This document shows positions 11,100-64,000 of a stretch of 64,000 nt of DNA, one piece after another. The stretch comes from Panopea generosa (Eukaryota; Mollusca; Bivalvia; Adapedonta; Hiatellidae), in the NCBI GenBank assembly GCA_029582155.1, contig CM055898.1, positions 37,891,458-37,955,457 on the forward strand, given 5' to 3'. The number at the start of each line of letters is the position of its first letter. Positions within the stretch are counted from its first letter, which is position 1. The notes beneath the pieces are model-generated. The model did no database searches. It saw only the letters and a list, made by a program, of their open reading frames with translations, and was not told the origin of the DNA. Position numbers and translations under genes: made by a program.

Positions 11100-12800
11100 G
11101 TAACATGGATATATTAAGTAACTCTTTTATCAGATAATATTATTTTATTTTGGTGCATTCGTAAAATTTTACAAATCCAAGCTAGTGGTATTACCACAAC
11201 AGTATTAACGTAGTTGATCTCCGTATATTCTAATTAAATATTAATTTATATAAATACACAAATAGTACAATGCTATACTGGTTAATAACCCGACAACGTT
11301 GGTGATATTTATATATGTGTGCATTCACAGGAATGACAATTCCAAATTCAAATTGTTTCCGGGAGCTTCGTTTTTTCTCATAATAAATATGACAAATCTA
11401 TAATTTGAGCATCATATTTTGCATAAAACATGTAATTCATTTAATGAGAAAATTGTGGTTAGACGTTTTTTTGTTTTATATATATGCAATGGTACACTAA
11501 TTTGAAAACAAAACATAACCTTAAGACAAGGAAATGTTGTCCCAAGCACATCAGACCGTTTTAATTCAAGTCGTATATGTTTATGTGTCCGTTTGTTCAT
11601 TAATCTTTATTCAATTTCTAATTTACACTACACAATGTTTAAAGCAATATTAAATTTACCCTTTGCTCCATAAGCATTTTCTTTGACTCTTCTAAATTGA
11701 AAGCATTAATTTACCACGTATCAACAACGGGTGAATCATGATTATATTACTTGACAGAGTGGAAAACATGTGCAGGAATCGTTCAGATTGCTCGTTACCA
11801 GCAATATGAACTCTTACTGCACTGTTTTCAAAGGCCCACAGTGATTGGTTAGGGAAAATGCTTATCTATGGAGTAAAGAGCAAATAAAAAAACATTACAA
11901 TGCTTAATATAATTTGATGCTTATACTCTTAGCCTTTGTCTTTTATTGTTCTGATTATGAATCTAAATAGTATTTCCCTACTCATTGAATTACTTGTTTA
12001 ATCACTTTGTAAATTACCTAATATACGCGTTGTATATAAATGACTCTACTATTTCTAGAATCGTGTATCTGAAGTGTCTTTGGCCAAAATACTTTAATAT
12101 TCGCATGTGCTTAGTACTTGTCATACCCAGGAAGGTTTTGAGAGTGATTGTAATAACTTTTTCATTCACCATATAAATAAGTTTTATCTGAAAAAAGGTT
12201 ATTTTATATTTTTTATCTACAAAAATAACTTTTTTATAACTTTTATCTGAGAATGTTTACTTTCTACTACTATTTGAGAACTACTTTTTTCTATATAATG
12301 TCTATATTACTGTCTTTATTTTCTAACTTCTATCTAAGAAAGCCTATTTATTGACGATATCTGTTTATTACAACATTAAACGTCATATTTAACACATAGC
12401 ACAACTGTAATAATTGCTTTTTTCACCTCTATAAAAGCAAAATGAAATTTTAACATATTACCTTTTATATGTATGTTCTAATTTATAAATTGTAGAAATA
12501 TTAGGCAAAGTAGTCATTTCCTAATTAATATAAGAAAATGTACACCATTTTACAATAAAATAAAATATTATCGTATTCTTTAACAAATTAAATTTTGTTG
12601 TTTAATTTCCTCAAAACTAATTTTTAAATTTACATATAATATATTCTATCTATTATATTTCTGATAACAACAGTTATATACTTTTTTCGTCATAATTTCA
12701 TATTTCACACAAACAATGGTAAAACACTACAACTGAAATAAAGTATATTACCAACATAATATCCTTTAATTCCTTATCAGTTCACACTATGATGATATCC
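11100..12800. other. AT-rich DNA, weak short repeats
   Basis: Around 12180-12350 the phrase AACTTTTATCTGAGAA recurs in degraded form every ~30-60 bases. No coding content is seen in the stretch. Confidence 0.4.
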
Positions 12801-12807
12801 CGACTGT

Positions 12808-13055
12808 CTACCTGATCGACTGAAATCCACTGCTTCGCTGTAACACCGCGTTATGCAGTGGAGGTAGTGCGCGTATTCCAATATCGTCAACTGTAGATTC
12901 CGCTGGATAAAACTTGAAATCATAAAAGTTCGAATGATCGTAAAAGGAAATTCCCATCATACACGATTGACCAAATTTGGCAATGGCCATACAATTATCT
13001 ACGTACAATAGCTCATTGTTAATGACGTCATATCGCACAATAATATATCTATGGT
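12808..13055 (-). CDS. Possible terminal exon of an unidentified gene
   Basis: A minus-strand frame of about 80 codons ends in TAG at 12808-12810. It is preceded, in its own reading direction, by a CCATAG acceptor-like site at about 13050. It encodes VRYDVINNELLYVDNCMAIA, then GISFYDHSNFYDFKFYPAES and a Leu/Pro-rich end. Base composition and codon variety differ from the very AT-rich flanks, and the peptide is not low-complexity. I cannot name the family; a weak resemblance to the C-terminal region of ependymin-related proteins is only an impression. No upstream exon was found. Confidence 0.33.
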
Positions 13056-13144
13056 AGATAGTTCATTTACAGTTTGGTTAGGTCTAGGTAATACTATATA
13101 CCAGCTATATTAAATGTTAAAGTGAAATAAATGTGTAATGCTAT

Positions 13145-13262
13145 AAGCCGTTTTCAATAGTATTTCAACATATGCATGTATTTATGAGTATTTTTTAAAA
13201 AATCTCAGAGTGTCACTGCACCCTTTTGTCTAAAAACAAACCCAAAGCGATCAACCTACAGA
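13145..13262 (+). repeat. Repeat R1, left half
   Basis: Resembles 18870-18990, sharing ATTTCAACATATGCATGT, then a T-rich run, then TGTCACTGCACCCT-like and TCAACCTAC. It stops exactly at TCAACCTAC, where the GC-rich module begins. Confidence 0.65.
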
Positions 13263-13560
13263 CCCTAAACCGCTCAAGTACCCAATAGCACGCAAACGGA
13301 GTGCACTCAGTGCGTTAACGGAGCGCGAAACGTAGCGCAGACGGAGCGTGAACGGAGTGCGAACGGAGCGCAGATCGAGCGCTGACGGCGCGGACCTGGA
13401 CTGTTAGTTAACGCTGGATTTTGAATACTAAACGCACTCCTGAACGCATGAAATATATCGAGTGTACTCAGATGCGAAATATATGCACTTTAAGCTAGAC
13501 ACAGTCAGATAACTGATAACTAAACTATGCGTGCGCTACTGAGCGCACTCGTTCATTCGG
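13259..13560. repeat. GC-rich module (CGGAGCGC array), copy A
   Basis: Begins ACAGACCCTAAA and carries about ten degenerate ~10-11-nt units of the form AACGGAGCGCG. Composition differs sharply from the AT-rich surroundings. Related blocks lie at 16935-17218 and 24247-24495. Confidence 0.7.
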
Positions 13561-14303
13561 ATACACTCTTTCTTCATAATTTGAACGTGAAGTCAATAAT
13601 CAAAATCGAGATAAATAAGATTTTTTCTGTTCACATAGATATAAACCATGTAGTATATAAAAATGTTTTTTGGTGTAACTCATGATAAAACTAATTTTGG
13701 TCAACAATTTGTCAATTATATCATAAATATCAATATTTAGCTAATCAATATAATAAAGTTAAAAAACGTATTATACAATAGACAAAGCATCATGTTTATC
13801 TACGGTTTCAAGGCCAATTTAGTTGCACATTTAAACATGATTTCATTTGTGCAACAAAAATATAAATAAATTGATATATTATGTAAATAACTGTTCGAAA
13901 ATATGTTATATGAAATCACTATTTGCCTTGTTATTTCGATATAAATTAGTCAAAACATACAGAACATATATTTCAATGGGATTTAGGGCGTATACAGCTC
14001 TAAACACACAAACAAATTAAAGCATTTGTGAATCAAAGAAAACATAGATATGCAAAAATTATATGATTATGATTTTATTTGTTTGAGTATTTTGGTAAAA
14101 TTAAAATTACCCATTTTCAATTCGATTTGGAGTTATATATTTTCCGTAAACATAGTTACACCCGAATCTGTGCTTAGTTGTGAAAAAAAGTGTACGTACA
14201 ACTGTTTTATTGCAATTAAAGTGAAAACAGTATACTCGTGCACATCTCATTTGATTATGCAATAATAGTACTGTACAAAGTTAATATCATTCTGAAATAT
14301 AAA

Positions 14304-14480
14304 GTGGGTCAGTAGTGCAGTGGATAGAGTGCTGGCTTCAGACGACAGAGGTTGCGAAGTTTGACCCGCGCTCTAACCTATGACTTTCGAAACACAATTC
14401 AGTACCAGATCTAATAAACTAATGCACTGGAGAATGACATGCATAAGCTCCGAGCTTACTTCACAATCAAGCTGAATTAA
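14304..14480 (+). repeat. tRNA-derived SINE, family A
   Basis: A degraded tRNA-like head (A-box-like TAGTGCAGTGG) is followed by a body ending in CATAAGCTCCGAGCTTACTT and CAATCAAGCTGAATT, shared with the copies at 28531 and 62165. Confidence 0.7.
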
Positions 14481-14817
14481 ATTAATGTAAAATAAATGTA
14501 TGTATGCCAAAACAACACGACAGGCCGAAATAACACGAAAGACACAGGAAATAAAAGCTAGTAAACCCACATTTCTAGGTGACCTTTTGTCATTTGTGAT
14601 TTGAGGTGGTGATTTTATACTGACTTAAGAACATAAGAATAGCAACAACTTTTGATCATGCGGATGGCTTAATAAACAAACAAGAACATGTATTCACTGT
14701 CCTATAAAATAGTAAATATAATGATTTCATACAAAATCGATACGCCTATCCACGTTCACGTAAGCAAGTAACAATTTATACAATATAAAAGCTGTGGCAA
14801 GGGGCAACACGTAAGAA

Positions 14818-15150
14818 ATAACAACAATAATAATAATTTTAATAGTTATAATAATAACGATACTTGTATTATTTTATAAAGAAGAAAAAATACTAAAATA
14901 ATAATAATAATAATATCTATAAAATGATATTTATAATAATAATAACGATTATAATGATAAAAATAAAAAGTATAAAAAGTAATAATAATAATAAAACCAA
15001 AACTATACGATAATATTAATAATAATAATAATGATGATAATAATAAAAAATAATAATAGTTGTAATAATGATAATAATAAAATGCTACAATAATAATGAC
15101 AATGATATTAATAATAAATAGTAATTATAATAATGATAATAATAATATTT
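14818..15150. repeat. (AAT)n-rich low-complexity tract
   Basis: Imperfect AAT/ATAATA repeats over more than 300 bases. No coding content. Confidence 0.85.
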
Positions 15151-15199
15151 TGAAAAAAAATCTGCATTGTTTTTAGTATTGATTTTGACTATATATTTC

Positions 15200-16930
15200 T
15201 TATTTAATCACATGTCGTTGGTTAAATTAAGATTCATTAATATGGCACAAATTATAATCAAAATACACGCACGCACGTATCCAATATAAAATCTTTGACA
15301 AATCAAGAAGTCAACATATATATATATATATATTAATAACAGATCCTATGATAATAATATTTCAATTAATAATTCTGATTTTTAATTTTATCTGTTATTT
15401 ATCAAAAGATATGCTGAGAGATTGGGAATGTAATTGACTTGTTTATTTCAACCCATAGGACTTATGACAATTAACGGACAAAAACTGAAAACTGTCAAAT
15501 ATGTTCGTAATTTATAATAAATGCTTTTGTTACGTAAAATAAAACAACTAAATTGTAAGTATAATGCCCATGCATGCACGTTGATTATTTTTTTTGTTTT
15601 AAATTCAAGATCCAGAATGCCAGCTGTGGTAAATTGACAGCCCTAGATACACATCCCTTAATACGTGTATGTCACACTTTCTACCATTCACTCAGTAATG
15701 GTTATATTTTATAACGTGGGGTTTTCGTTTCGTTAATTTAATGATATTAATATCATGGGTTTACATACTAATGTATCGTGCTGAAACCTCGAAGTCAAAT
15801 ATCTTAAATGAATTTGTCTTGATTTGTTTTTAATTGGCAGGCAGATTTTTCTTATATCTTTTCTTTTCAATCACATACTGCGGGTTCAATTAAGATTCTC
15901 TGTCTGGCACTAATCACAATCAAAATGAAAGCATCCGCAGGGTTCTTCCGTGGTCAATAGACCGGTAAGTCACCGCTTTGGCGTATAATTTAATTGATAC
16001 GGCTCTCACTGGCATGTGACATAACGATTTTAACACCGCGGGTGTCTGTATTGCTGCGTGTCATATACGTAGCGGTATTGCACAGTGGGTATATTTTCAA
16101 ACAAGTTTAATATTGTTTGTATTTTAAATAATATATTAACATGAATCATAGTATCAGTAAAATAAATAGTTTAAGAAAAGTTCATTTCAGGTACATTATA
16201 TATAAACATATATACATAAAGATAACGAAAATATTTATTAAATCTTATAATATCAGAATATCTTTTTTAAGTTTAGTGAAGCCACATTTAGACCAAAATC
16301 GAGAAAAACATTATTTTTCAAAAATCATTTGTTATTTTATATGTCAAATCCCATCGCACGAATTATAATAAAGTTTTCATCACCCATGCAGTGCATAATT
16401 TTATTATTGATTATAAAGCTGATTTTAGTTTGAACATTAACAAAAACCAGTGACAAATCAACATATTGTTAGGTCACTGCTTCTAGTGAGCAAATGAATT
16501 GATTACTTTTAATCAAAAGATGTATAAGCGGTTTGAATTATTAATAACAATTACAATATATTTAGTTTATGTTGATGATGTATCTGAAAATTTTGTGAAC
16601 AACTTTCGTTGCTTTCCTGTAACAAAGGGCAAACGGCTTATGGTATATCAAAGAAGTTACTGACGCAAACACATTTCGGTCCGGATAATAGAAGCTGGTA
16701 GAGCGTTCGATATTCTTTGATCACACAGACCACTGATCACATATCAAAATATAGACACTTCCGTTAATTTTCCCTACTATCAGTAATGGTTTACCCGAAA
16801 TTTACAACCTTTCGCCCAGCGGGCGACACAATATGTAAACACACAATCGAATTATGAATTCAATTACCTTGTCAATGACTAAATCCCATGGATACATTTA
16901 ATTTATTGCTCCATTTTTAACAGCTCAAAT
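15200..16930. other. Gene-free AT-rich DNA
   Basis: Contains a short TA run near 15318-15333 and a 75-codon Ile/Lys-rich frame at 16141-16368 that reads as composition noise. Confidence 0.5.
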
Positions 16931-16934
16931 TAAA

Positions 16935-17218
16935 AAGTCAATATGGAATCATTTGAAGAGTTGACATGATGCGATTGGTTATGGACCGGAAACTGAACTG
17001 AACGGACTGAAAGTTGAGTGAACGCTGAACAAACAAAGCGAATGCTGAGAGGAATATAAAATAAAGATAGTATACATCGCTCCTGAGTGAATAATTGCGT
17101 TTGTGAGTGCATTACATTAACCGCTCTTAATCGAGTGCACGCAATACGGAGCATAAACGGAGCGCGAACGAAGCGCAAACTGAGCGCGAACGGACGCGAA
17201 CGAAGTGCAAACATAAGT
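16935..17218. repeat. GC-rich module (CGGAGCGC array), copy B
   Basis: Contains GATGCGATTGGT, GAGTGAACGCTGA, and an array of AACGGAGCGCG/AACGAAGCGCA units ending at about 17213. It runs directly into the right half of repeat R1 at 17219. The 94-codon minus-strand frame across it is a product of the array. Confidence 0.75.
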
Positions 17219-17375
17219 TATTGTGCATTTTTATTTGGGTTTACATTCCTGCTATGAAAAACAAAAGTGACAAAAAAAGTCTTTGTAGAATTCTTTTTTT
17301 ACCATAGAAATACTAGACATTATTTTATAAAGAACAAAGAACACAATTCAACTGTGTAGTGAGACCTTAAGAAAA
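17219..17375 (+). repeat. Repeat R1, right half
   Basis: Matches 18992-19150 from TTATTGTG through GGGTTTACATTCCTG, AATTCTTTTTTTACCAT, AGAACAAAGAACA and AATTCAACTGTGTAG. The reverse complement recurs at 63860-64000. Confidence 0.8.
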
Positions 17376-18869
17376 ATATGATCAAACGCTTGTAAAAAAG
17401 CGCCACAAAGACACAGATCATTTTTTTCAGTCAGAATATTCACAGATGCAGTAAATTTAGTGAATTTGATGTGTTTAACGGTGTCATTTTATGAGAAATC
17501 AGGGGATTTGGACAAATATTTGACAATATTATGGCTATAATATTGATGAAAATGCAAGTAGAATAAATTGGATTTGTATCAATCAGTTGTTTTGCTCTTC
17601 TAGCAGTGATATTGAGAAAAGAAGTGCACATTAATGTATGACAATAGGCACTAGGGACTCATTTTATTGTTTCTACCAACTTAGCAATGCTTATGGTATT
17701 GACAAATTGTCAGATTATTCGAGGAAGACTTAAAACAGTCATTGTTTCTGTTTACAATTGTAACTTTCTAACATAGAATCACATTTTGGCATCATGGAAA
17801 GGCGGATACAATTGTATGATCCAACCTTGTGGGCATGTTTACAACATGTAAAGTGTCCAAATGGCCAGTTATAGACAATTTTTAAAACAATTCAAGCATA
17901 TTTTTATATTGACCATGTTAGAAATGTACCCCACCCACTTTCTTTTATAGAGTCAACATAATCTCAGTTGAGATAATGAACATGTCTGAGTAGCCGTTAA
18001 CTCTTCGTGAGTTGTTGTAACATAACATGTCGCTTGTCGTTTTAGTTTGTAATTTTCATCAAATACTTTGGAGAATCGTTTGATTTTGTATTTTCCGGTA
18101 TTTTATATCAATTTCTTGTACAAGTTTTTACCTAGAAATGTTTATGAAAACTGTACCATTTTAACCAATGATAACACGCGATATCACCAAATGCTTCTTA
18201 ACTATTAAGCAAAAAAAACTGCACTTGAGTCTCTTCTTATTTCTAAATATTTAAAGTACAAAAACAATACTTAGCCTATATTGAAACTGGCAATTGATTT
18301 AGAGTTTATGTTTAGATAGCAATTTCCATAATGGCATGTTTAATACACATGAAGTTATTATGAAATAAAGTATAGTACAGTAAAATATTGCACAATTTAG
18401 ACAATGTACACACTGTTACACAATACAGAAGCATTTTAAAAGAAAACCATTCAGCAACTGAAATCTTACAACTCATGAGCTATGGAAATGTAATGGGACA
18501 AACTTTCAACTTTTATTGGTGAAAAGTGGCCAATTTTACAAAAACAAATGAACTTTGTATGAAGCCATCAGTCCTTAAAATCTACATAAATCAACTTTTT
18601 GATGCACTTTTTGTTCAGATTACTATCTAAAGTTGTCGCAAGTCAAATTTTGTCCAAAAGGTGCGCATGCTCTCTCCTATAACGTCTCCCTACACAGTTA
18701 CGCCCCCCTTTTCCTCACAACAACTTGATTCTTACGCTTAAAAACAAAACCCATGTAATTTGGTTTTGAAATATTTTCAAAAAGGTTCATAGAAGCTGTG
18801 ATTTCTTGCTGCAGATGAGTAGAGCAAACGTTGGTATAGTATATACTGCAACTAAGACATCACGGGTGT
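17376..18869. other. AT-rich segment between two direct R1 copies
   Basis: Not recognised. It is bounded by the R1 right half (17219-17375) and the full R1 copy (18870-19150) in the same orientation. It might be the interior of a larger non-coding transposon, but no frame over ~65 codons is present. Confidence 0.4.
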
Positions 18870-19150
18870 TAAAAAGTGACTTTTATAGGATTTCAACATA
18901 TGCATGTGTTTATAAGCTTTTGAGGACTCTTTTTTTCAAAAGATTTCATGTTGTCACCTTCACCCTCTTTAAAAAACACAACTTGGTCAACCTACCAGTT
19001 ATTGTGTATTTTTATGTGGGTTTACATTCCTGTTATGAAAAACAAAACTGACAAAAAAATTCTGTGGAATTCTTTTTTTACCATGGAAATCATAGACGAT
19101 ATTTTATATAGAACAAAGAACAAAATTCAACTGTGTAGCGAAGACCTAAA
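18870..19150 (+). repeat. Repeat R1, apparently uninterrupted copy
   Basis: Left half (ATTTCAACATATGCATGTGT to TCAACCTAC) and right half (CAGTTATTGTGTATTTTTAT to CAACTGTGTAG) are contiguous here, with no GC-rich module between them. Two overlapping frames of 81 and 87 codons cross it but have no recognisable product. Confidence 0.75.
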
Positions 19151-20944
19151 ATGTACTTATATGAATAAAATATTGTTTAAACTAAACATGACTATTTTTC
19201 AACAATTCTAAATAAGCATAAGGTTATTAAACTTTACTGCCTTATCTCTATTGTAACAGAACAGTATTACTGTGCTTATTTTTTCATTCTTTCATATATA
19301 AAATGTTATATTTTCATGTTTCTGTTGAGAAAATATCATTTTCATTTAGAAGTGAAGCAACTTCAAGATGCATTATTCCTGCTTAAAACTGCAACATATT
19401 TTGTGATGTATTGATTGAGACACCTGATTTCATTTTGATTTCAATTTGATTCATTACACAAGGTTTACACGTAGAAAAACATTTTTAGCTTAGAATGAAT
19501 CCGTTTTCTGATGTGAAGGTCGTCAATCAGTATTTAAGGGATGTTTTACTATCAGAATGAGCTTTAGTTTCAAGTATACCTCTTCACTTAAATATTAATT
19601 TTGTTACGTGTTTGTGTACTTGACACACTAAACTATTCAGATTGTATTTAATCAATACTAATGAGATATTTTTTACATATTTTAAAAATAGTTTTATTTT
19701 TAAAGACAATTTGTCTCCTGATATAATCTCTTAAAGAGTAAAAACTACAAATTGAAGATTTTGAAGCAATTAGGAAAATCAACATAACATATTACAAGCA
19801 AGTTAAAATAATATCCGAGGTAATGGAATATCGGAAACTCAGAGAGCACAATTACCTCTTGCAGTACAAGCATGTGCTATTATGAACAATGCCATAAAAG
19901 ACTTTACGGAGCCTTATTGAGATTAGTTAATAAGACAACAAGTGTTATACAAGGGTGACAAACATATCACTCCACATTAGCTGAATTCGAACGTGATCGA
20001 ACTTCATTTTCCGAAGAATCTGATTGAAGAAATATAAAAGCTGAGATTGTTGTCGAAATCTACGTCAATAAAGACATGTATTAATCAACTGGTCAAACAG
20101 CCATGATGAAAATGCAACAGTGAAAGGGGGCTAATAACAGCTTCAAACGGACACAGCAATAGCTTGGAACAAACAGTTGCATATGTATTCAAACTTACTT
20201 TTTCAGTGCCTTATAACTTTATTGGAAAGTAATTTTGACATTTCAAAATAGTTTTTTTCAAAAATGAACTTTCTGGCAACCCATGTGCCAAGTTTGATTT
20301 TTTCTTGTTCCAGTCTCTTAAAGAAAGCTAAAAGACGCTACTTTGAGAACGAGACTTTAATTTTCTAAATCAACCGTGCTTCAGTTTTTCTGTTATGTTA
20401 ATCGGGTCAAAGGGTGTACATCAGTTGATTAAGTGTCAGCGCTACTTTAATACAAATTACATGACAGAAATTGAACAAAATTAACAAACTGTCTATGTCA
20501 CCGAAAGATAATATTCCGTTCTACAATTGTACATGTATTTGAATTAAACAATGTTGCAGCGATTACTTTAATATTATATTAAAATACAACAAACAATTTG
20601 CTAATATCAAAATAAAATATTTCACATTCGAAACATATTCAAATTAGATATAGGATTGATAACCAACACACAAAAGTATCAACATAATTTATTTGCGTGT
20701 GTGTGTGTAAAATAATATGGATATGGTATCTAAACGCACTCAGATGGGAATGTTTTTTCAATTTGAATTGTTAATGAGGAAGAATAGCTGTCTTTACATC
20801 ACACCACATTTGATATATATTTTCACACCACACTTGATGTATATCTTTATTCGGTTTGTAAAATTATCCGTTCAACATTGCTGTGTATTATTTTTGGCCC
20901 TAAGCAATTAAAAAAATCACGTTGAATATTATAAAAAAATAAAC

Positions 20945-21420
20945 TGCCGGCTTTCGTATTCGGTATAGCATACATCGATCCTAAATGAAATTGGTTTAAC
21001 ATTAAAGTTCTACAGAAAATTGTAACCTTCTCATTAAAGAATATGGCGGTTCTAATTAATAGTACCTTAACCTAAAATGCTATTGAAAACAGTACCTTCT
21101 TATTACAGCATACAGCGATCTCATTTCAAATGTGACTTTTCCTAAAACTCTACTGAAAATAGTATTTTCTCATTGCAGCATAATTATAGCGATTCTAATT
21201 AAAAGTGACTTAACCTAAAATGCTTCAGAAATTCGGATCACTGGCTTTCTCATTTCAGCATAAGGCGATTCTAAGAAAATATTCTCGGAATCGTATTAAT
21301 TATCCGAGTGCCGGCTTTTACACTACAGGAAGCGACAGTCTACATTCACCCTGCTTTAAATATTGCTGAACATCGGAACGCTGACTTTTTCATTATAGCA
21401 TGTGGCGATCCTTTATAAAA
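20945..21420. repeat. Degenerate tandem array, ~70-80-nt unit, 5-6 copies
   Basis: Recurring order of CTTTCTCATTACAGCATA, GCGATTCTAATTAAAAGTGA, CTTAACCTAAAATGCT and CTGAAAATAG. Copies are diverged, with insertions. Confidence 0.75.
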
Positions 21421-22194
21421 TAATGTTATTATATTCATACTTAGTTTTTCTGGGAAACGAATAGGAGTAGGACAATGCTCAATTCTTCATCAGTGTCTAT
21501 ATGCATGCTGGAATATATAACAAAGTGTAGCATATAACGACCATAAATAGAAGGTTATTTTAAAGAATTATTGAAAACCCAATCCAAAAGAAAATAAACC
21601 CCAGACTGAACAATGGTGCTATGGCACCAGGACCTGGCAACCGACTCACAGAAATAAACTTAAATTTTCCATGATGGTGTTGATATATCTATTTGACTTG
21701 TTTATGAAAGTCGTGTGTCTGTTTGGATTATATTTACATTTATCTCAATGACTTCCGGATTCTTTACAAAGTGTTACTGTTCTGTAACACGGAATACGTG
21801 CCTACCTTTCTGGCCAAGTGCCAATATACACTGAACGGAATAGCTGACCCGCCAGTTTTGCATTTCCAAATGTATTGTCAAAACTTTGAATAGCGTTATT
21901 AATTGATATACTACATACACATACAATATATTGATTTTATATAGTCTAAACGTTCTCTCGTATTTAAGTCCAAATTTCAAGAAAATTGTTTTGATAAAAA
22001 TAGACAAAATGTCATGTAAAAAAATGTCAGGTGATGGGTTATCTGGTCCGTTCAGTATATCTTCTTTCCAAACATGACACATCCTAAATCTATAACTGCC
22101 ATACACTGGAAAATTGTTGGCACTAAGCAGTTGAATTATGTTCTTAATTTGTTCTGTTTAAAGTAATGTCTAGGATATCTACGGTAAAAAACAT

Positions 22195-22385
22195 TTTTCA
22201 CATTTTGTTTTGAATATTTTTTTCATAACAGGAATGTATCCCAACATAAAAATGCACAATAAATGGTATTATGTTGACCAGCTTGTTTTCTAAAGAAAGA
22301 ACAGTGACAGCTAAATATTTTTTATTGAAAATGAAGTTATCAAGTACGCATCAATACATGCATTTTTTGAAATACTATACACGTC
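22195..22385 (-). repeat. Repeat R1, inverted copy
   Basis: The reverse complement shows the R1 right-half phrase around TACATTCCTG, joined through about ten bases to the left-half phrases GTTGACCAGCTTG and CATGCATTTTTTGAAATA. No GC-rich module is present. Confidence 0.65.
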
Positions 22386-22654
22386 ACTTTGTTATTACCA
22401 GTCTCATTGCAGTATATGCTATGACAGCGTTTGTTCTTCTCGTCTGCGCAAAGGAAATTACAAACGTTATTTACAATTTTGAAAATATTTAAAATCAAAT
22501 CATAAAGGAAATGTGTAAGTCCAAGAATCCTGTTACCGTGGCGAAAAGAGGGCACAACTGTGTGGTGAGACGTTAATTCTATATTAAACAGAACTTGTTC
22601 TAAAAAAGTGGAAGAAGTAACTGGGTCAGCCAGGTCAGAATAATTCTTTGTTCG

Positions 22655-23390
22655 AATGGGTTTGGTTTTGTGTGGATAAACCAACATGTACAAAATGAAA
22701 GTGTGTTCATGTTGTCATTAGTTCGACGTTTGAAAGACCAGTATGTACAGAGTTGGATAGAAGCAATTAATATGTCGTCTAAATTGTGTTTCTACAAAGA
22801 ATATAAACTAACCTATGATCATGAATTATATCTAGATATTTTGTTTGTTAAAAAATTCAGATATTCACTTGCAAAGTTTAGATCTGGTTCACACAATTTA
22901 GAAATTGAAACTGGAAGACATCATGACACTGATAGGAACTTACGGGTTTGCAAAATATGTACATCAAATGAGGTAGAGGACGAGTATCACTTTTTATTAT
23001 GTTGTACAGCCTACTCTTATCTTTGAGGGGTATATATTCCACAAAAATACTTTTGTTATTCTAATATGAACAAATTCCGAATACTTATGTCTACAAAAAA
23101 TGAGAAATTGTTGCAATCAGTTGCATGTTACATTTATTATGCATTCGAGAAACGTAAAGAATTGATGATGATATAAAAAAAAACTGAAGATACGATATTC
23201 TATTATGTATATGCCACATCCAGGATACTGCTTATTACAATGCTCTTACAATGATTTATTGTTGACATCTTAATTCAGATGCATTTTTTACATCGTGTAC
23301 AATTTCATAATTAACATGTTTGTATTATGTGTTGTGGGCTGGAGGCCTTATATCACAATAAACTTTGTTGTTGTTGTTGTTTTAAACAAA
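22655..23390 (+). pseudogene. 3' end of a LINE (non-LTR) retrotransposon: C-terminal part of ORF2
   Basis: The frame reads GFGFVWINQHVQNESVF, then RLKDQYVQSW, then a conserved tail LAKFRSGSHNLEIETGRHH followed by CKICTSNEVEDEYHFLLCC, a Cys/His cluster found at the C-terminus of many invertebrate LINE reverse transcriptases. A single TGA at 23024-23026 interrupts it. The same frame then continues YIPQKYF to YYAFEKRKELMMI and a TAA. About 190 bases later AATAAA and a (TTG)n run (about 23368-23390) look like the element's 3' tail. The piece is 5'-truncated, as usual for LINEs. Confidence 0.75.
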
Positions 23391-23580
23391 CCGCTATAAT
23401 GTGTAATAAAGAGTTCTACATGCGATCAGTTCTGATCAGTCTTTTTATCCTCTTACAAAAGCTTGTTTCCAGAATTTACAAAGGACCATGTCTGGTATAA
23501 TTTATACATTTTGTACATGTATTACCTCAATGAACACGCCTAAAAATTATTATTTTGTATAACATTTCAAGATCAAACTA

Positions 23581-23810
23581 GTCTGTAAAACGGACACAGT
23601 TTTCCCGATTGGTTCTGTTAAATAGCAATGTTGAGAAAGAGTTATTTCAGCAAGTGGATTGGTTAGTTGCTTCCACTGATGTTTGGATGACGTCACAGTT
23701 TAGTAAGCGTTCAACTGCAATTAGCTGAAGGACAGACATAGAAATCCCTGCCTTTTCATTTGGGTTTGATAGACCTGATTCGGGAGAGATCTGGTTCTGG
23801 GATAGACTAA
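23581..23810 (+). repeat. Dispersed ~230-bp repeat, copy 1, with CRE palindrome
   Basis: Homologous to 36107-36332 by direct comparison. It contains TGACGTCA at 23688-23695. I see no open frame. It could be a short non-autonomous transposon or a segmental copy of a promoter region. Confidence 0.8.
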
Positions 23811-24246
23811 GGCTAAACGTTTGTCACCGTAACCCAAATGGAGATCACTTGTTGAAGAAATGAATGGACATCGTATATGGTATCGTTTACATGCTTTACC
23901 AAATTAATCTCAAGAATGCAAGGAGCCTCTGGTAGCATGTTCGTATTTTGATTTTTCATTTAACATATTTGCATTTGAGTTTGCCTTGGTCAGAGAAGTC
24001 CCAAATTTCTGAGACTTGATCTTTGGAAAATCGATTGCAAACATATGTCAAATGTTGACTGAAACTATATTCACTGTCCTGATACAGCTACGTTGTCCCA
24101 GATGAAGTTTTGTTTTATAGAAACACAACTGTATGAAAAGTGTTGAGTTACCATTGCAGTTACGTCCGTTCTGAAATAGTTAATGTTTGAAACTTATATT
24201 CTGTTTTTTTATATGTGTTGTTTTATGAACAAAACATGTATTGTTA

Positions 24247-24495
24247 CAGACCCTAAATCATTCGAGCTCAGTTTGCGCTCTGTTTGCGCTCCGTTCACGC
24301 TCCGGTTGCGTGCAGTTAATTTAGTACACTCAATTGAATGCACTAACACACGCAACCAATCGTTCACGAACAATGTACACTGCATTTCCGAACGCTATTT
24401 ACCTTGTTCATTCAATTCTTGTGTCAGCGTTCACTCAGCGTTCACTCTATGATAAGGTCGGCTGACCAATCGCAATATCTCAACATTTCGTCAAA
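24247..24495. repeat. GC-rich module (CGGAGCGC array), copy C
   Basis: Starts ACAGACCCTAAA as in copy A, then reads GTTTGCGCTCCGTTCACGCT, the opposite strand of the array in copies A and B. It ends with CAGCGTTCACTC and CTGACCAATCGCAATATCTC, the complement of the GCGATTGGT end of copy B. Confidence 0.75.
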
Positions 24496-24499
24496 TAAT

Positions 24500-26750
24500 A
24501 TATTATTTTATTTGTTGCAACCCAGCAATCACGCTAAATGGCGGCATTAAAACGGAATCGATTAACTGTGTCAACGAAAAACGCTTTCAGCTTTACGAAG
24601 AAGTGAGATGTCCCCCGTTTAGATTCAGAGGACACTTGAACGCCTGCTATTAATTAAAACAACGAGACAGTGTGTTCGTCGTTTTCTTGTATATATGCAA
24701 TATCTTGTTTTAACGAAGGAGGAATACCTCAATGTAAATCTGAATTGAACCACCGTCGTTCCGCAAGCAGTCTCCAAGGTTTAACGCATAAAGGTTTTGA
24801 ACTGAGCCAAGCTAGAATTCATGACTTTGTTTAATTTTACTTCGAGATACTTTGTATTCATTTCTTTTATCACATTATGTTGTCACAGTATTTTTTATGA
24901 ATATTTAATATTGTTTGATTTATTGATTGGTTTATACAAGTATTTTGAACTTTCATTTTACTTCGAGCCTAATTGATAATAGTTATGTGATAGATTTGTG
25001 AAAATGTATTATTTGTGCAATGAATAACTATAATACTAGTACAAATGCAACTTACGTACCGCCTAGTTGTAAGCTCATACATCAAATGTTCAATAATTAT
25101 TTACCGTTACTCTTTTTTTTAATAGTTTTTACATAACAATAAACTTTGATTTGTGTTAACAAAAAGTGAATGTTTTTTTATATCTCACTGTTACGCTATG
25201 GCTTTATCTATATATTTTCAAATATTTAGTAAGAAGTTTTCCTGTCTCCCTTCGTGTCTGCTGACAGTAACACTTTTAATTAGTGACTTTCATCGTTATC
25301 CATCGTGAATGCTCTTCCACGTTAGTGTTTGTAGTCGGAAATAAAGTCCACGTTGGTGTTTGTTGACGAAAATATGTGAACAAACACTTACAGATCAAAT
25401 TTTCAATTGTAAAATGCAAATAGGTATACCCTGCTTTGACAACTATCTCAGATAGTTAAGAGAATTTAAAAACATAGAACAAATCTTAGTACAATCGAAA
25501 TCCAAACTAGAAATAAAATATGGCGCTCAATAAAATTCGAAATATTTAGAAAAGCAACCTTAAATAATCAACATCAATATGAATGGATCTAATTTGGTAA
25601 ATTAATCTCTCTCTCGTTCTCTTTCTCTCTCTCGCTCTCTTTCTCTCTCTCCCTCTCATTTTCACTACACTAAATCATATGACTTCTGTTTTAAATGCAA
25701 TTATTCTATGTACAATGTTTTATTGTATGTATGACAATGAAAATAAATAGTTCTTGGTAACTCAAAAATATATATATATATAAATAAATAAAAATATAAA
25801 CTTTCAGAACAGAACAACAGAACCAGAATTACTGGTCCGCATTAACAAAATAGAGTAATTTAATTTCATATTAATATTATATAGATAAAAAACTTTCGGA
25901 AATGAAAATATGTATTAAGATATCCATGTGTACCAACTTGCCATTCCTAGAGGAATGTTGAAATAACAGTAAGCCGTTGTTCTATCATAAAACCATTCAA
26001 TCCGCATTACACACAACGGCGAGCGTTTTTGCAGTTTTATCTCATTAAATAAGATATATGGAATAAATAAATTTACCTATAAATCATCATTTATGTTAGC
26101 TTAATCAATACTCACTCTATGCATGGTAATCATATTTAATAAACATAGTCGATTTCTATGAAAAACTCATGGGAAATCTATAATAGTTCATACGTATATT
26201 AATCTGTTTCCTTGGAAAATGCATTTAAGTTGTATTATGATATTCCCTGCACGAACTTATTTAGAAATCAGCGTCATTGCAGTGTGTTCTTTTTTCTCCA
26301 ATTACTGGTGAGCGCCTTTATTGTGTCCTTCAATACATTTTTTATACGTCAACTGTGGGCTATTTAAAAGGCAAACCCAGATGTATTTGTCCTGCGCATT
26401 AATATAAATGGGTTTTGTGATGCGATATTGATTTTCTCTGAACAATTTTCTAGCAAATAACGACGCTATATTTCCGGAGTCAACAGACTAATGATCCAAG
26501 TCCTCCTCGGAGCAGTTATAGCGCCAAACAATGTTAGTTTACTTTAAAAGCTTTTGTTCGGTTTGGGATTTATGGCGATGCACATCATAAAATACCCACT
26601 TGGAAATAAACTTTTTCTCAGTCTGAAGGACAATAGGTCTTGCTATATTGATTAAAAGCATTCCTTTGTGGAACGATCAATGCAAGATCAATAGTATTGC
26701 AATATGGTTTTATCAGTCAATAAATGTGTGAAATATGCGGCAATGCATAT
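24500..26750. other. Gene-free AT-rich DNA
   Basis: Nothing beyond the TC microsatellite is recognised, and there is no convincing frame. Confidence 0.5.
25607..25660. repeat. (TC)n microsatellite
   Basis: Imperfect TCTCTC with TTTC and GCTC interruptions. Confidence 0.85.
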
Positions 26751-28110: not shown

Positions 28111-28530
28111 ATCTAGCTTTATAGACAAAACATGATGATACATTTTTTACAATAAGGTTCAAGATAATAGCAAGCGCAAACCGCTGATATAGTAACATAT
28201 ATATTGAACAGACTTAAAACCCTAATGATAAACATGTTACCGGAAGTTGTTCCATGGGGAACTTAACTTTGGCTGCTGTTAAAGTAAAATCTGCAGCTGT
28301 GTATTAAAACAATCACTATGAAAATGAAGGTTTATCTACTGAAATAGAAATGTGAGAATGTTGAAAGATACGTTTTAAAAACGTCGCTTTATACGCCAAA
28401 AGCTCTTTGGTAATCTCATTTTTGCAGCATACTATTACCCTGTCTATTCTGAAGTAGTCCCAGACTGGCACTCTGACTGATTTAATGAGTGGCAGTCTTG
28501 ATTATCAGCGAGGCTTGCTCTTCCTAAAGC

Positions 28531-28712
28531 GGGGTGGTAGTGTAATGGATAGAGTGTTGGCCGCTCACGCCAGAGGTTGTGCGTTCGATTCCCTGTTTGC
28601 CCCGATGACTCTCATAAAACAACACTCAGTACTGGTTCTACCCAGGAAGAAGACTCGAGAGCGTTTCATATAAGCTCTGAGCTTTCATCGCAATCGAGCT
28701 AAAATAAATTAG
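28531..28712 (+). repeat. tRNA-derived SINE, family A
   Basis: The head GGGGTGGTAGTGTAATGGAT has an A-box-like part and the B box GTTCGATTCC at 28583-28592. The body contains CACTCAGTACTGGTTCTACC, CATATAAGCTCTGAGCTTTC and ATCGCAATCGAGCTAAAATA. Head ends pair (GGGG/CCCC), but the anticodon loop lacks the usual T33, so it is not an intact tRNA. Confidence 0.85.
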
Positions 28713-29535
28713 TATTAACTAAAAAACTAAAATACAAACGTATCTTGGCCTTCACCCTGTTGGGTTTACCTTCTTCTTATTAATACTTGTAGATTATTAC
28801 ATCCATATGGTTAAACGTGATTGAGTAAAGATTGATTTGGTGAGTGTACCCGAGTACAATTCATTTTAAACATTGTCGTCTGCTGCTTTACATCTTCCGG
28901 TATAATCCAGTTTACGTGACAGCATGCTTTTACGAAATGTTTCGCATGGTTTGACTTATATTGGAAAATATCGCTTACGTAAAACTGAATATTTTATTGC
29001 TTAAATAAGACTTTATACGTACGTCATGGTAAAATCAATTACGCAGTACTCAACATTTGAATAACAAAATAAGGGTAGGATGAATTTATAGAGCACAAAT
29101 ATTTGTTTAGACATTCCACTTCCACAATACTTAACCAAGGACGACCCTCATACACCTTAAGAACTGATGTATCCAGGCAGTTATTTTATTTTTATACGAG
29201 TAGGTCACTTTGTCTACAGCAAAATCAGCTTCACTGATACAGGGGCTGTATGAAGAGACTCGTTTTGATAAGTTAGCGTCTGTTTGGACATCTCCCCTTT
29301 GTCTATTCCCGGGGTCAGCGTCATTCTTACAGCACCATTACAGTAACACCTCGCGCTATATTGTTGGCAAAAATTGTAATTTTTACAAAGTGTTAGACGC
29401 GCAAAGTACACATCGTTGTGAAGGATTATTTTATCAATTAGAGTATTAAATTTACGTTGAATCGGTGATTGATATCAAAGTAGGAACTGTTTATAAGGAT
29501 GCTATATAGTTGATTTAACATTTAATCATTAGATT

Positions 29536-61336: not shown

Positions 61337-62164
61337 TTAACATCTCTTCAAATTTTGTAATGTATGTGTAATATTCCACGCTAAAAATGTATCATGTCGA
61401 CGTTTATGTTCTTATATGTGTAATACATTGTGAAACTATAAATGTGAATAAATGATATTCAAATATATCCGCCAAAAATATTTGATCGCTAATAAGAAAG
61501 ATTGTATTGTTTTATAAACCAACCGCTTGATTGTTACATATATAAATAAGGTACTTACTGTGTGACCAAATACTTTACTTTTCGCCGCTATACAAGTAAT
61601 GGTTGATAAACGTTGATGGTGAAAACGTGAGTTTTAGAATAAATGCATCAATACAACTGATTTGATTTATATCTGCAAAAGGTTCTTATTTGTCTTTAAT
61701 TTTGACTTAAAATTAATACCTTAGCACGTGGATCAGATTTAATATGCCACACACCCTAGAAAATGCTCTATTACCTTTTCCAACCAATCTGAATGTGCTA
61801 AATATGTATCACACAATTTTACTCTGTTTTACATAGAGAAATGCCCTTATGGAACACTGGTGACATTACCAATGATTCTAAAAGTGATTTCTTTCCATAA
61901 ATAGTCCTATGTTAGTGGTCCAAAATGCAGAAAAAACATGGGGTGGACCAGGATGCTTTTTTACAATCCGAATGGTTTGATAACACCCCTTTATGTTTGA
62001 CAAGTCTGCCCATTTGTTGAAGTATAACACTACACATCTTTTAACTATTATAGCTTCATCAAAAACAGTCTTCCAAATTGACACAAATCATGAAAATAGT
62101 CCAATGTTCTCATATGAACAAAGACATATGACAATTTTATGCACTGTATTGCTCAACCGATTTA

Positions 62165-63859: not shown

Positions 63860-64000
63860 AGATCTCACTACACAGTTGAATTTCGTTCTTTGTTCTATAT
63901 AAAATAAGGTCTAGGATTTCAATGGTAAAAAAATAATTCCACTTAGAATTTGTTTAAAGTATTTTTATTTTCATAGCAGGAATGTATACCCACATAAAAC
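63860..64000 (-). repeat. Repeat R1, inverted copy cut by window end
   Basis: CACTACACAGTTGAATTTCG, GTTCTTTGTTCTATAT, TGGTAAAAAAATAATTCCAC and GCAGGAATGTATACCCACAT are reverse-complement matches to R1 at 18992-19150. Confidence 0.8.

What the first reader, a model, noticed from the sequence alone, without database searches (positions are those of the whole stretch)
13145..19150. GC-rich CGGAGCGC module appears nested in repeat R1
R1 is contiguous at 18870-19150 (TCAACCTAC directly followed by CAGTTATTGTG). At 13145-13262 R1's left half stops at TCAACCTAC, exactly where the GC-rich module starts. At 17219 R1's right half starts at TTATTGTG, exactly where another module copy ends. This looks like filled and empty sites at one preferred position, or a modular composite element. 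The module itself is an array of ~10-nt GC-rich units, very unlike the surrounding DNA.
Basis: seen in the sequence. Interest (0 to 1): 0.7.

Follow-up and report, generated by a model that had tools for sequence, protein, structure and literature searches.

The report
Ordinary transposon inserted in another repeat
The GC-rich "module" is the pair of ends of a common four-kilobase jumping element that happened to land once inside a copy of another repeat, so the striking junction is an ordinary nested insertion and not a special site.

Summary
The junctions are real. One copy of R1, a roughly 460-bp MITE-like repeat, is split: its left part ends at 13258 and its right part resumes at about 17214. 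Complete relatives elsewhere in this 1.47-Gb genome have ~36-bp terminal inverted repeats (CAGACCCTAAACCRCTCAAGTACCCC...), TA target-site duplications, and arrays of an 11-bp GC-rich unit (AACGGAGCGCG) inside both ends, in the same direction. Genome-wide, 1174 of 1182 exact terminal 27-mers are preceded by TA. Only one exact R1/element junction exists (the window's), against 1631 exact uninterrupted R1 sites, about what chance gives: no preferred R1 site. "Filled versus empty site" is right; "preferred position" and "modular composite element" are not. The window copy has lost the last ~38 bp of its right end. None of seven copies checked has an open frame over 128 codons, and no autonomous partner was found; assignment to Tc1/mariner-like transposons rests on the TA target and is inferred. 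New family of a known kind; low interest.

The parts
13087..13258 (+). left part of one R1 MITE-like copy (from about R1 position 150-160 to ...TCAACCTA), eroded
13257..13258 (+). TA target dinucleotide at the left junction
13259..17212 (+). one copy of a 3.5-4.0-kb non-coding DNA transposon (3,954 bp here, 78-80% to L067/L068 in collinear pieces)
13259..13293 (+). left terminal inverted repeat CAGACCCTAAACCGCTCAAGTACCC...
14300..14496 (+). 197-bp dispersed (SINE-like) repeat embedded at the corresponding place in 5 of 6 other family members; part of the family, not a later insert
17133..17212 (+). right subterminal array of the same 11-bp units, same direction as the left one; the element's last ~38 bp (right inverted repeat) are missing in this copy
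17214..17366 (+). right part of the same R1 copy (TA, then AGTTATTGTG... to the R1 3' end)
18682..19146 (+). uninterrupted R1 copy (empty site, CAACCTACCAGTTATTG)
24247..24490 (-). diverged right end of a related element (array plus TTTAGGGTCTG, then TA); its left end was not recognised in the window

Best explanation
A non-autonomous cut-and-paste DNA transposon of 3.5-4.0 kb inserted at a TA dinucleotide that happens to lie inside an R1 MITE copy (TCAACC-TA-CCAGTTATTG), splitting it. Shown: element boundaries, inverted ends, TA target and duplication in relatives, subterminal 11-bp arrays at both ends, many dispersed copies, no long open frame in the seven copies checked, and no R1 preference. 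Inferred: it is moved in trans by a TA-targeting transposase of the Tc1/mariner kind encoded elsewhere, and the GC-rich 11-bp arrays next to the inverted repeats are binding (or accessory) sites for that transposase. After insertion this copy lost its right-hand inverted repeat plus two R1 bases (CC).
For: Complementary R1 parts. All 21 left junctions examined (window plus 20 fetched of the 39 other places listed) begin at the same position directly after TA; pairwise BLAST of the 200-bp flanks finds one related pair, L049/L051. Six complete copies (L067-L072) are bounded TA...TA with ends in inverted orientation. L067's insertion has an uninterrupted homologue at window 61816-62063, with one TA where L067 has two. 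1174 of 1182 exact 27-mer ends are preceded by TA (reversed-pattern controls 0). Of the first 100 exact ends listed, 37 inward-facing pairs lie 2144-4036 bp apart, 33 of them 3542-4036 bp. The window copy aligns to L067 and L068 over 3427 of its 3954 bp, and no stretch of 16 bp or more of it is missing from all six other copies. Its left end differs at 13 of 161 positions (8.1%) from the consensus of 20 copies, close to the R1 parts' 6.6-9.4%. The longest open stretch in any of seven copies is 128 codons; four ORF segments gave no Pfam match at or above a curated cut-off (one weak Gypsy hit, E 0.074).
Against: The window copy has no right inverted repeat and no clean right TA duplication, so its own duplication cannot be read. 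No transposase could be tied to these ends: two DDE_1 loci fetched (about 2 kb either side of the domain) lack them, apart from one isolated 12-mer with 2 mismatches in L074. Of 14 DDE_1 places listed on C1, the nearest to a listed end is 2.2 kb outside an unpaired end at C1:43038257 and was not read. Arrays run in the same direction at both ends, and 3.6 kb is long for a non-coding Tc1/mariner relative (recalled), so the superfamily is not settled.
Confidence: 0.93

Rival explanations
1. The GC-rich module is itself a small mobile or satellite-like unit with a preferred insertion site in R1.
For: Exact junctions on both sides of an R1 copy in the window.
Against: One exact R1/module junction genome-wide; 14 places with up to 1 mismatch, that one included; reversed control 1. 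Against this, 1631 exact uninterrupted R1 sites. Opposite orientation: 0 exact, 3 with 1 mismatch, 23 with up to 2, reversed control 9. By BLAST, 0 of 20 other left flanks contain R1 and none of the stretches L067-L072 does. Modules occur as the two ends of one element.
Confidence: 0.02
2. R1 parts and modules form one composite element that transposes as a unit (R1-left, module, core, module, R1-right).
For: The order of pieces in 13087-17366.
Against: The other 20 left flanks hold no R1 and are unrelated to each other except L049/L051; six complete copies end at the inverted repeats; R1 copies exist without the element.
Confidence: 0.01
3. The element belongs to another superfamily that can use TA targets (for example a Mirage-like CMC or ISL2EU lineage, recalled) and not to Tc1/mariner.
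For: Subterminal direct repeats are described for CACTA elements (PMC2613891, seen only in search listings). No transposase identified. Length about 3.6 kb.
Against: Strict TA duplication and a CAG start fit IS630/Tc1/mariner (TA as shared trait: PMC7325037, passages read; the CAG start is recalled).
Confidence: 0.3

Closest known systems
IS630/Tc1/mariner DNA transposons and their non-autonomous derivatives
   Same: Terminal inverted repeats, TA target-site duplication, dispersed copies, ends starting CAG (last point recalled).
   Different: No transposase found in any copy checked; 3.5-4.0 kb of non-coding DNA; GC-rich 11-bp arrays in direct orientation at both ends; partner unknown.
CACTA (En/Spm) transposons with subterminal repeats
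   Same: Short repeated motifs just inside the inverted ends.
   Different: Ends are CAGACCC, not CACTA, and the target duplication is TA, not 3 bp (CACTA traits recalled).
MITEs (for the host repeat R1)
   Same: About 464 bp, ~17-bp inverted ends, over a thousand copies (1631 exact 19-mers), 4-bp duplications in 8 of 21 copies with both ends.
   Different: Superfamily of R1 not determined here.

Membership tests
Class II (TIR) DNA transposon, non-autonomous | terminal inverted repeats | tested here: met
   36-column alignment of the two ends with 33 identities, one mismatch and one 2-bp gap in L067 and in L068; inward-facing pairs. The window copy lacks the right one.
Class II (TIR) DNA transposon, non-autonomous | target-site duplication at unrelated sites | tested here: met
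   TA on both sides in 6 of 6 complete copies; one TA in the empty homologue of L067's site. Of 21 left flanks only L049/L051 are related.
Class II (TIR) DNA transposon, non-autonomous | no transposase gene in the copies | tested here: met
   Longest open stretch 128 codons in seven copies; four ORF segments searched in Pfam, none at or above a curated cut-off.
IS630/Tc1/mariner | TA target-site duplication | tested here: met
   1174 of 1182 exact ends preceded by TA; TA on both sides in 6 of 6 complete copies.
IS630/Tc1/mariner | DDE/D transposase of this superfamily acting on these ends | tested here: inconclusive
   152 DDE_1 (pogo-type) matches, 150 candidates scored of 281; two loci fetched do not carry these ends. 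DDE_3 and mariner-type models were not searched.
CACTA (En/Spm) | CACTA ends and 3-bp target duplication | tested here: not met
   Ends CAGACCC, duplication TA.
MITE (R1) | short element with inverted ends and target duplication | tested here: met
   464-bp consensus and inverted ends from 28 copies, all fetched by similarity to R1 (27 from the hits, L009 as the window's neighbour); both ends found in 21, of which 8 show a 4-bp duplication, 4 a shorter one and 9 none recognised. Absence of coding in R1 was not tested separately.

The most novel reading that the evidence does not exclude
The family could represent an undescribed transposon lineage that strictly targets TA and whose ends are defined by direct (not inverted) GC-rich 11-bp arrays, allowing unusually long (3.6-kb) non-coding passengers to be mobilised in trans to many hundreds of copies.
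Probability: 0.12. Interest if true: 0.35.

Novelty: new member of a known kind. Interest (0 to 1): 0.13.

Why it matters
It removes an apparent site-specific or composite element and replaces it with a well-bounded transposon family plus a MITE family, useful for repeat annotation of this genome. The nested insertion orders the two repeats at this place: R1 was there first.

Tried and rejected
Preferred R1 site: tested with exact and near-exact junction patterns in both orientations and rejected. Composite R1-module unit: rejected from 20 other left flanks. Two independent half-R1 copies: rejected because the parts meet at consensus positions 313/315 and have similar substitution levels. Coding function of the core: no long open frame, no Pfam family at cut-off in four ORF segments. 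RNA function: no Rfam match up to E 0.1 in 12500-25000 and no tRNA in the window. Sample of 200 kb from ten 20-kb places that I picked by round coordinates (L029-L048): R1 in 2 of 10 places (4 BLAST pieces, about 3 copies), the module by BLAST in 0 of 10, the 11-mer end with up to 1 mismatch in 0 of 10; isolated 9-mers ACGGAGCGC with up to 1 mismatch in 4 of 10, no arrays. Autonomous partner: a DDE_1 search and two fetched DDE_1 loci gave no match to the ends. Family search for the diverged copy at 24.3 kb: not completed, so its family status is open. Literature (four searches): only listings with starts of abstracts seen, plus passages of PMC7325037; nothing describing this element was noticed, which is weak evidence of absence.

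Full report
Setting. The window lies in a 1.47-Gb genome of 39 contigs (window = contig C5, 37.89-37.96 Mb).

What R1 is. R1 was aligned from 28 copies, all obtained through similarity to the window copy or its neighbourhood. The consensus is 464 bp with ~17-bp inverted ends (CGTCTCACTACACAG... / ...CTGTGTAGTGAGACC). Both ends were found in 21 of 28 copies; 8 of these 21 show a 4-bp duplication, 4 a shorter one and 9 none recognised. It is MITE-like. The exact 19-mer across the site in question (CAACCTACCAGTTATTGTG) occurs 1631 times in the genome (795 + 836); the reversed-pattern control gave 0.

What the module is. A search with the 162 bp from CAGACCC onward gave 1004 first-look candidates, of which 40 were scored; all 40 matches start at query position 1-3 (the query itself began there). 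The left junctions of 20 of the other 39 places were fetched. With the window copy, 21 of 21 begin at the same position directly after TA. Pairwise BLAST of the 200-bp flanks finds one related pair, L049/L051, so there are about 20 independent sites. R1 was found by BLAST beside the window copy only.

The whole element. Two long stretches (L067, L068) hold complete copies of 3570 and 3578 bp, 98.6% identical, with inverted ends (36 alignment columns: 33 identities, one mismatch, one 2-bp gap), TA on both sides, and arrays of the 11-bp unit at both ends pointing the same way. Four more copies (L069-L072; 2144, 2896, 4036 and 3883 bp) are also bounded TA...TA. The window stretch 13259-17212 aligns to L067 in collinear pieces at about 78-80%, covering 3427 of 3954 bp; the six other copies cover between 2083 (L069, internally deleted) and 3596 bp (L072), and together leave no stretch of 16 bp or more unmatched. 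The 283 bp absent from L067 (13749-14031) are present in L069-L072, the 197-bp dispersed repeat (14300-14496) sits at the corresponding place in five of six other copies, and 15373-15616 is matched mainly in L071. The window copy is therefore a long family member rather than a pile of later inserts. It has lost the last ~38 bp.

Empty site. L067 itself inserted into yet another repeat. An uninterrupted homologue of that repeat lies in our window at 61816-62063 and has one TA where the L067 flanks supply two. This is a direct demonstration of the TA duplication.

Genome-wide counts. The terminal 27-mer CAGACCCTAAACCRCTCAAGTACCCCA occurs 1182 times (570 + 612), and 1174 (564 + 610) of these are preceded by TA; the reversed-pattern controls gave 0. 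Of the first 100 ends listed, 74 form 37 inward-facing pairs 2144-4036 bp apart, 33 of them 3542-4036 bp. Since only exact ends were counted (the window's own end has a deleted C and is not among them), these numbers are lower bounds.

No preferred junction. The R1/element junction CAACCTACAGACCCTAAA occurs once exactly (the window); 14 places have up to one mismatch, that one included; reversed control 1. By simple arithmetic, about 1.1 of 1174 TA-flanked ends would be preceded by CAACC by chance. The opposite orientation (ATAACTGGTACAGACCCTAAA) occurs 0 times exactly, 3 times with one mismatch and 23 times with up to two, against 9 for the reversed control. One of the one-mismatch places (C1:28184266) is L072, which holds no R1 by BLAST (about 50 bp of flank on each side). 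The other near matches were not fetched, so a few further chance insertions into R1 cannot be excluded.

Age. The R1 parts differ 9.4% and 6.6% from the R1 consensus. The element's left 161 bp differ 8.1% from the consensus of the 20 others. This fits insertion into an existing R1 copy and similar ages; it is rough.

Mechanism. Shown: TIR element, TA targeting, no long open frame in the copies checked. Inferred: movement in trans by a TA-targeting transposase, most likely of the IS630/Tc1/mariner group. TA is the shared target of that group (PMC7325037, passages read). The genome contains pogo-type DDE_1 transposases (152 matches, 150 candidates scored of 281), but the two loci fetched do not carry these ends, and of the 14 DDE_1 places listed on C1 none lies within 2 kb of a listed end (the listing of ends stops at 56.5 Mb of C1). 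The partner is unknown. The role of the GC-rich array as transposase binding or accessory site is by analogy with subterminal repeats of other transposons (recalled).

Verdict. The explanation is an ordinary nested insertion of a non-autonomous DNA transposon into a MITE. It is a new family of a known kind as far as could be seen here; no library of repeat consensus sequences was available, so it may already be catalogued.

Noticed in passing
contig C1 of G000: Among the first 100 exact ends listed, most lie at 24-57 Mb of the 101-Mb contig C1 and few at 5-22 Mb, whereas the first 100 R1 sites look evenly spread over 0.5-81 Mb. The listings stop before the end of the contig, so this is only a hint of regional bias.
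   Followed up: no
window 14300-14496: A ~197-bp dispersed SINE-like repeat embedded in the transposon family at a fixed place. Diverged copies lie at window 28525-28723 and in samples S4 and S10, with fragments in S8 and S9. SINE-like is my impression; ARAGORN found no tRNA.
   Followed up: partly
window 24247-24490 (minus): Diverged right end of a related element with the same array and TTTAGGGTCTG end but no recognised left end in the window; it may belong to another subfamily.
   Followed up: partly
G000 C1:43826975-43834212: Two element-sized pairs of ends lie side by side, about 77 bp apart (listing); not fetched.
   Followed up: no
   Followed up: no
window 63863-64000 continuing into L009: A further R1 copy runs across the window's right edge.
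   Followed up: yes
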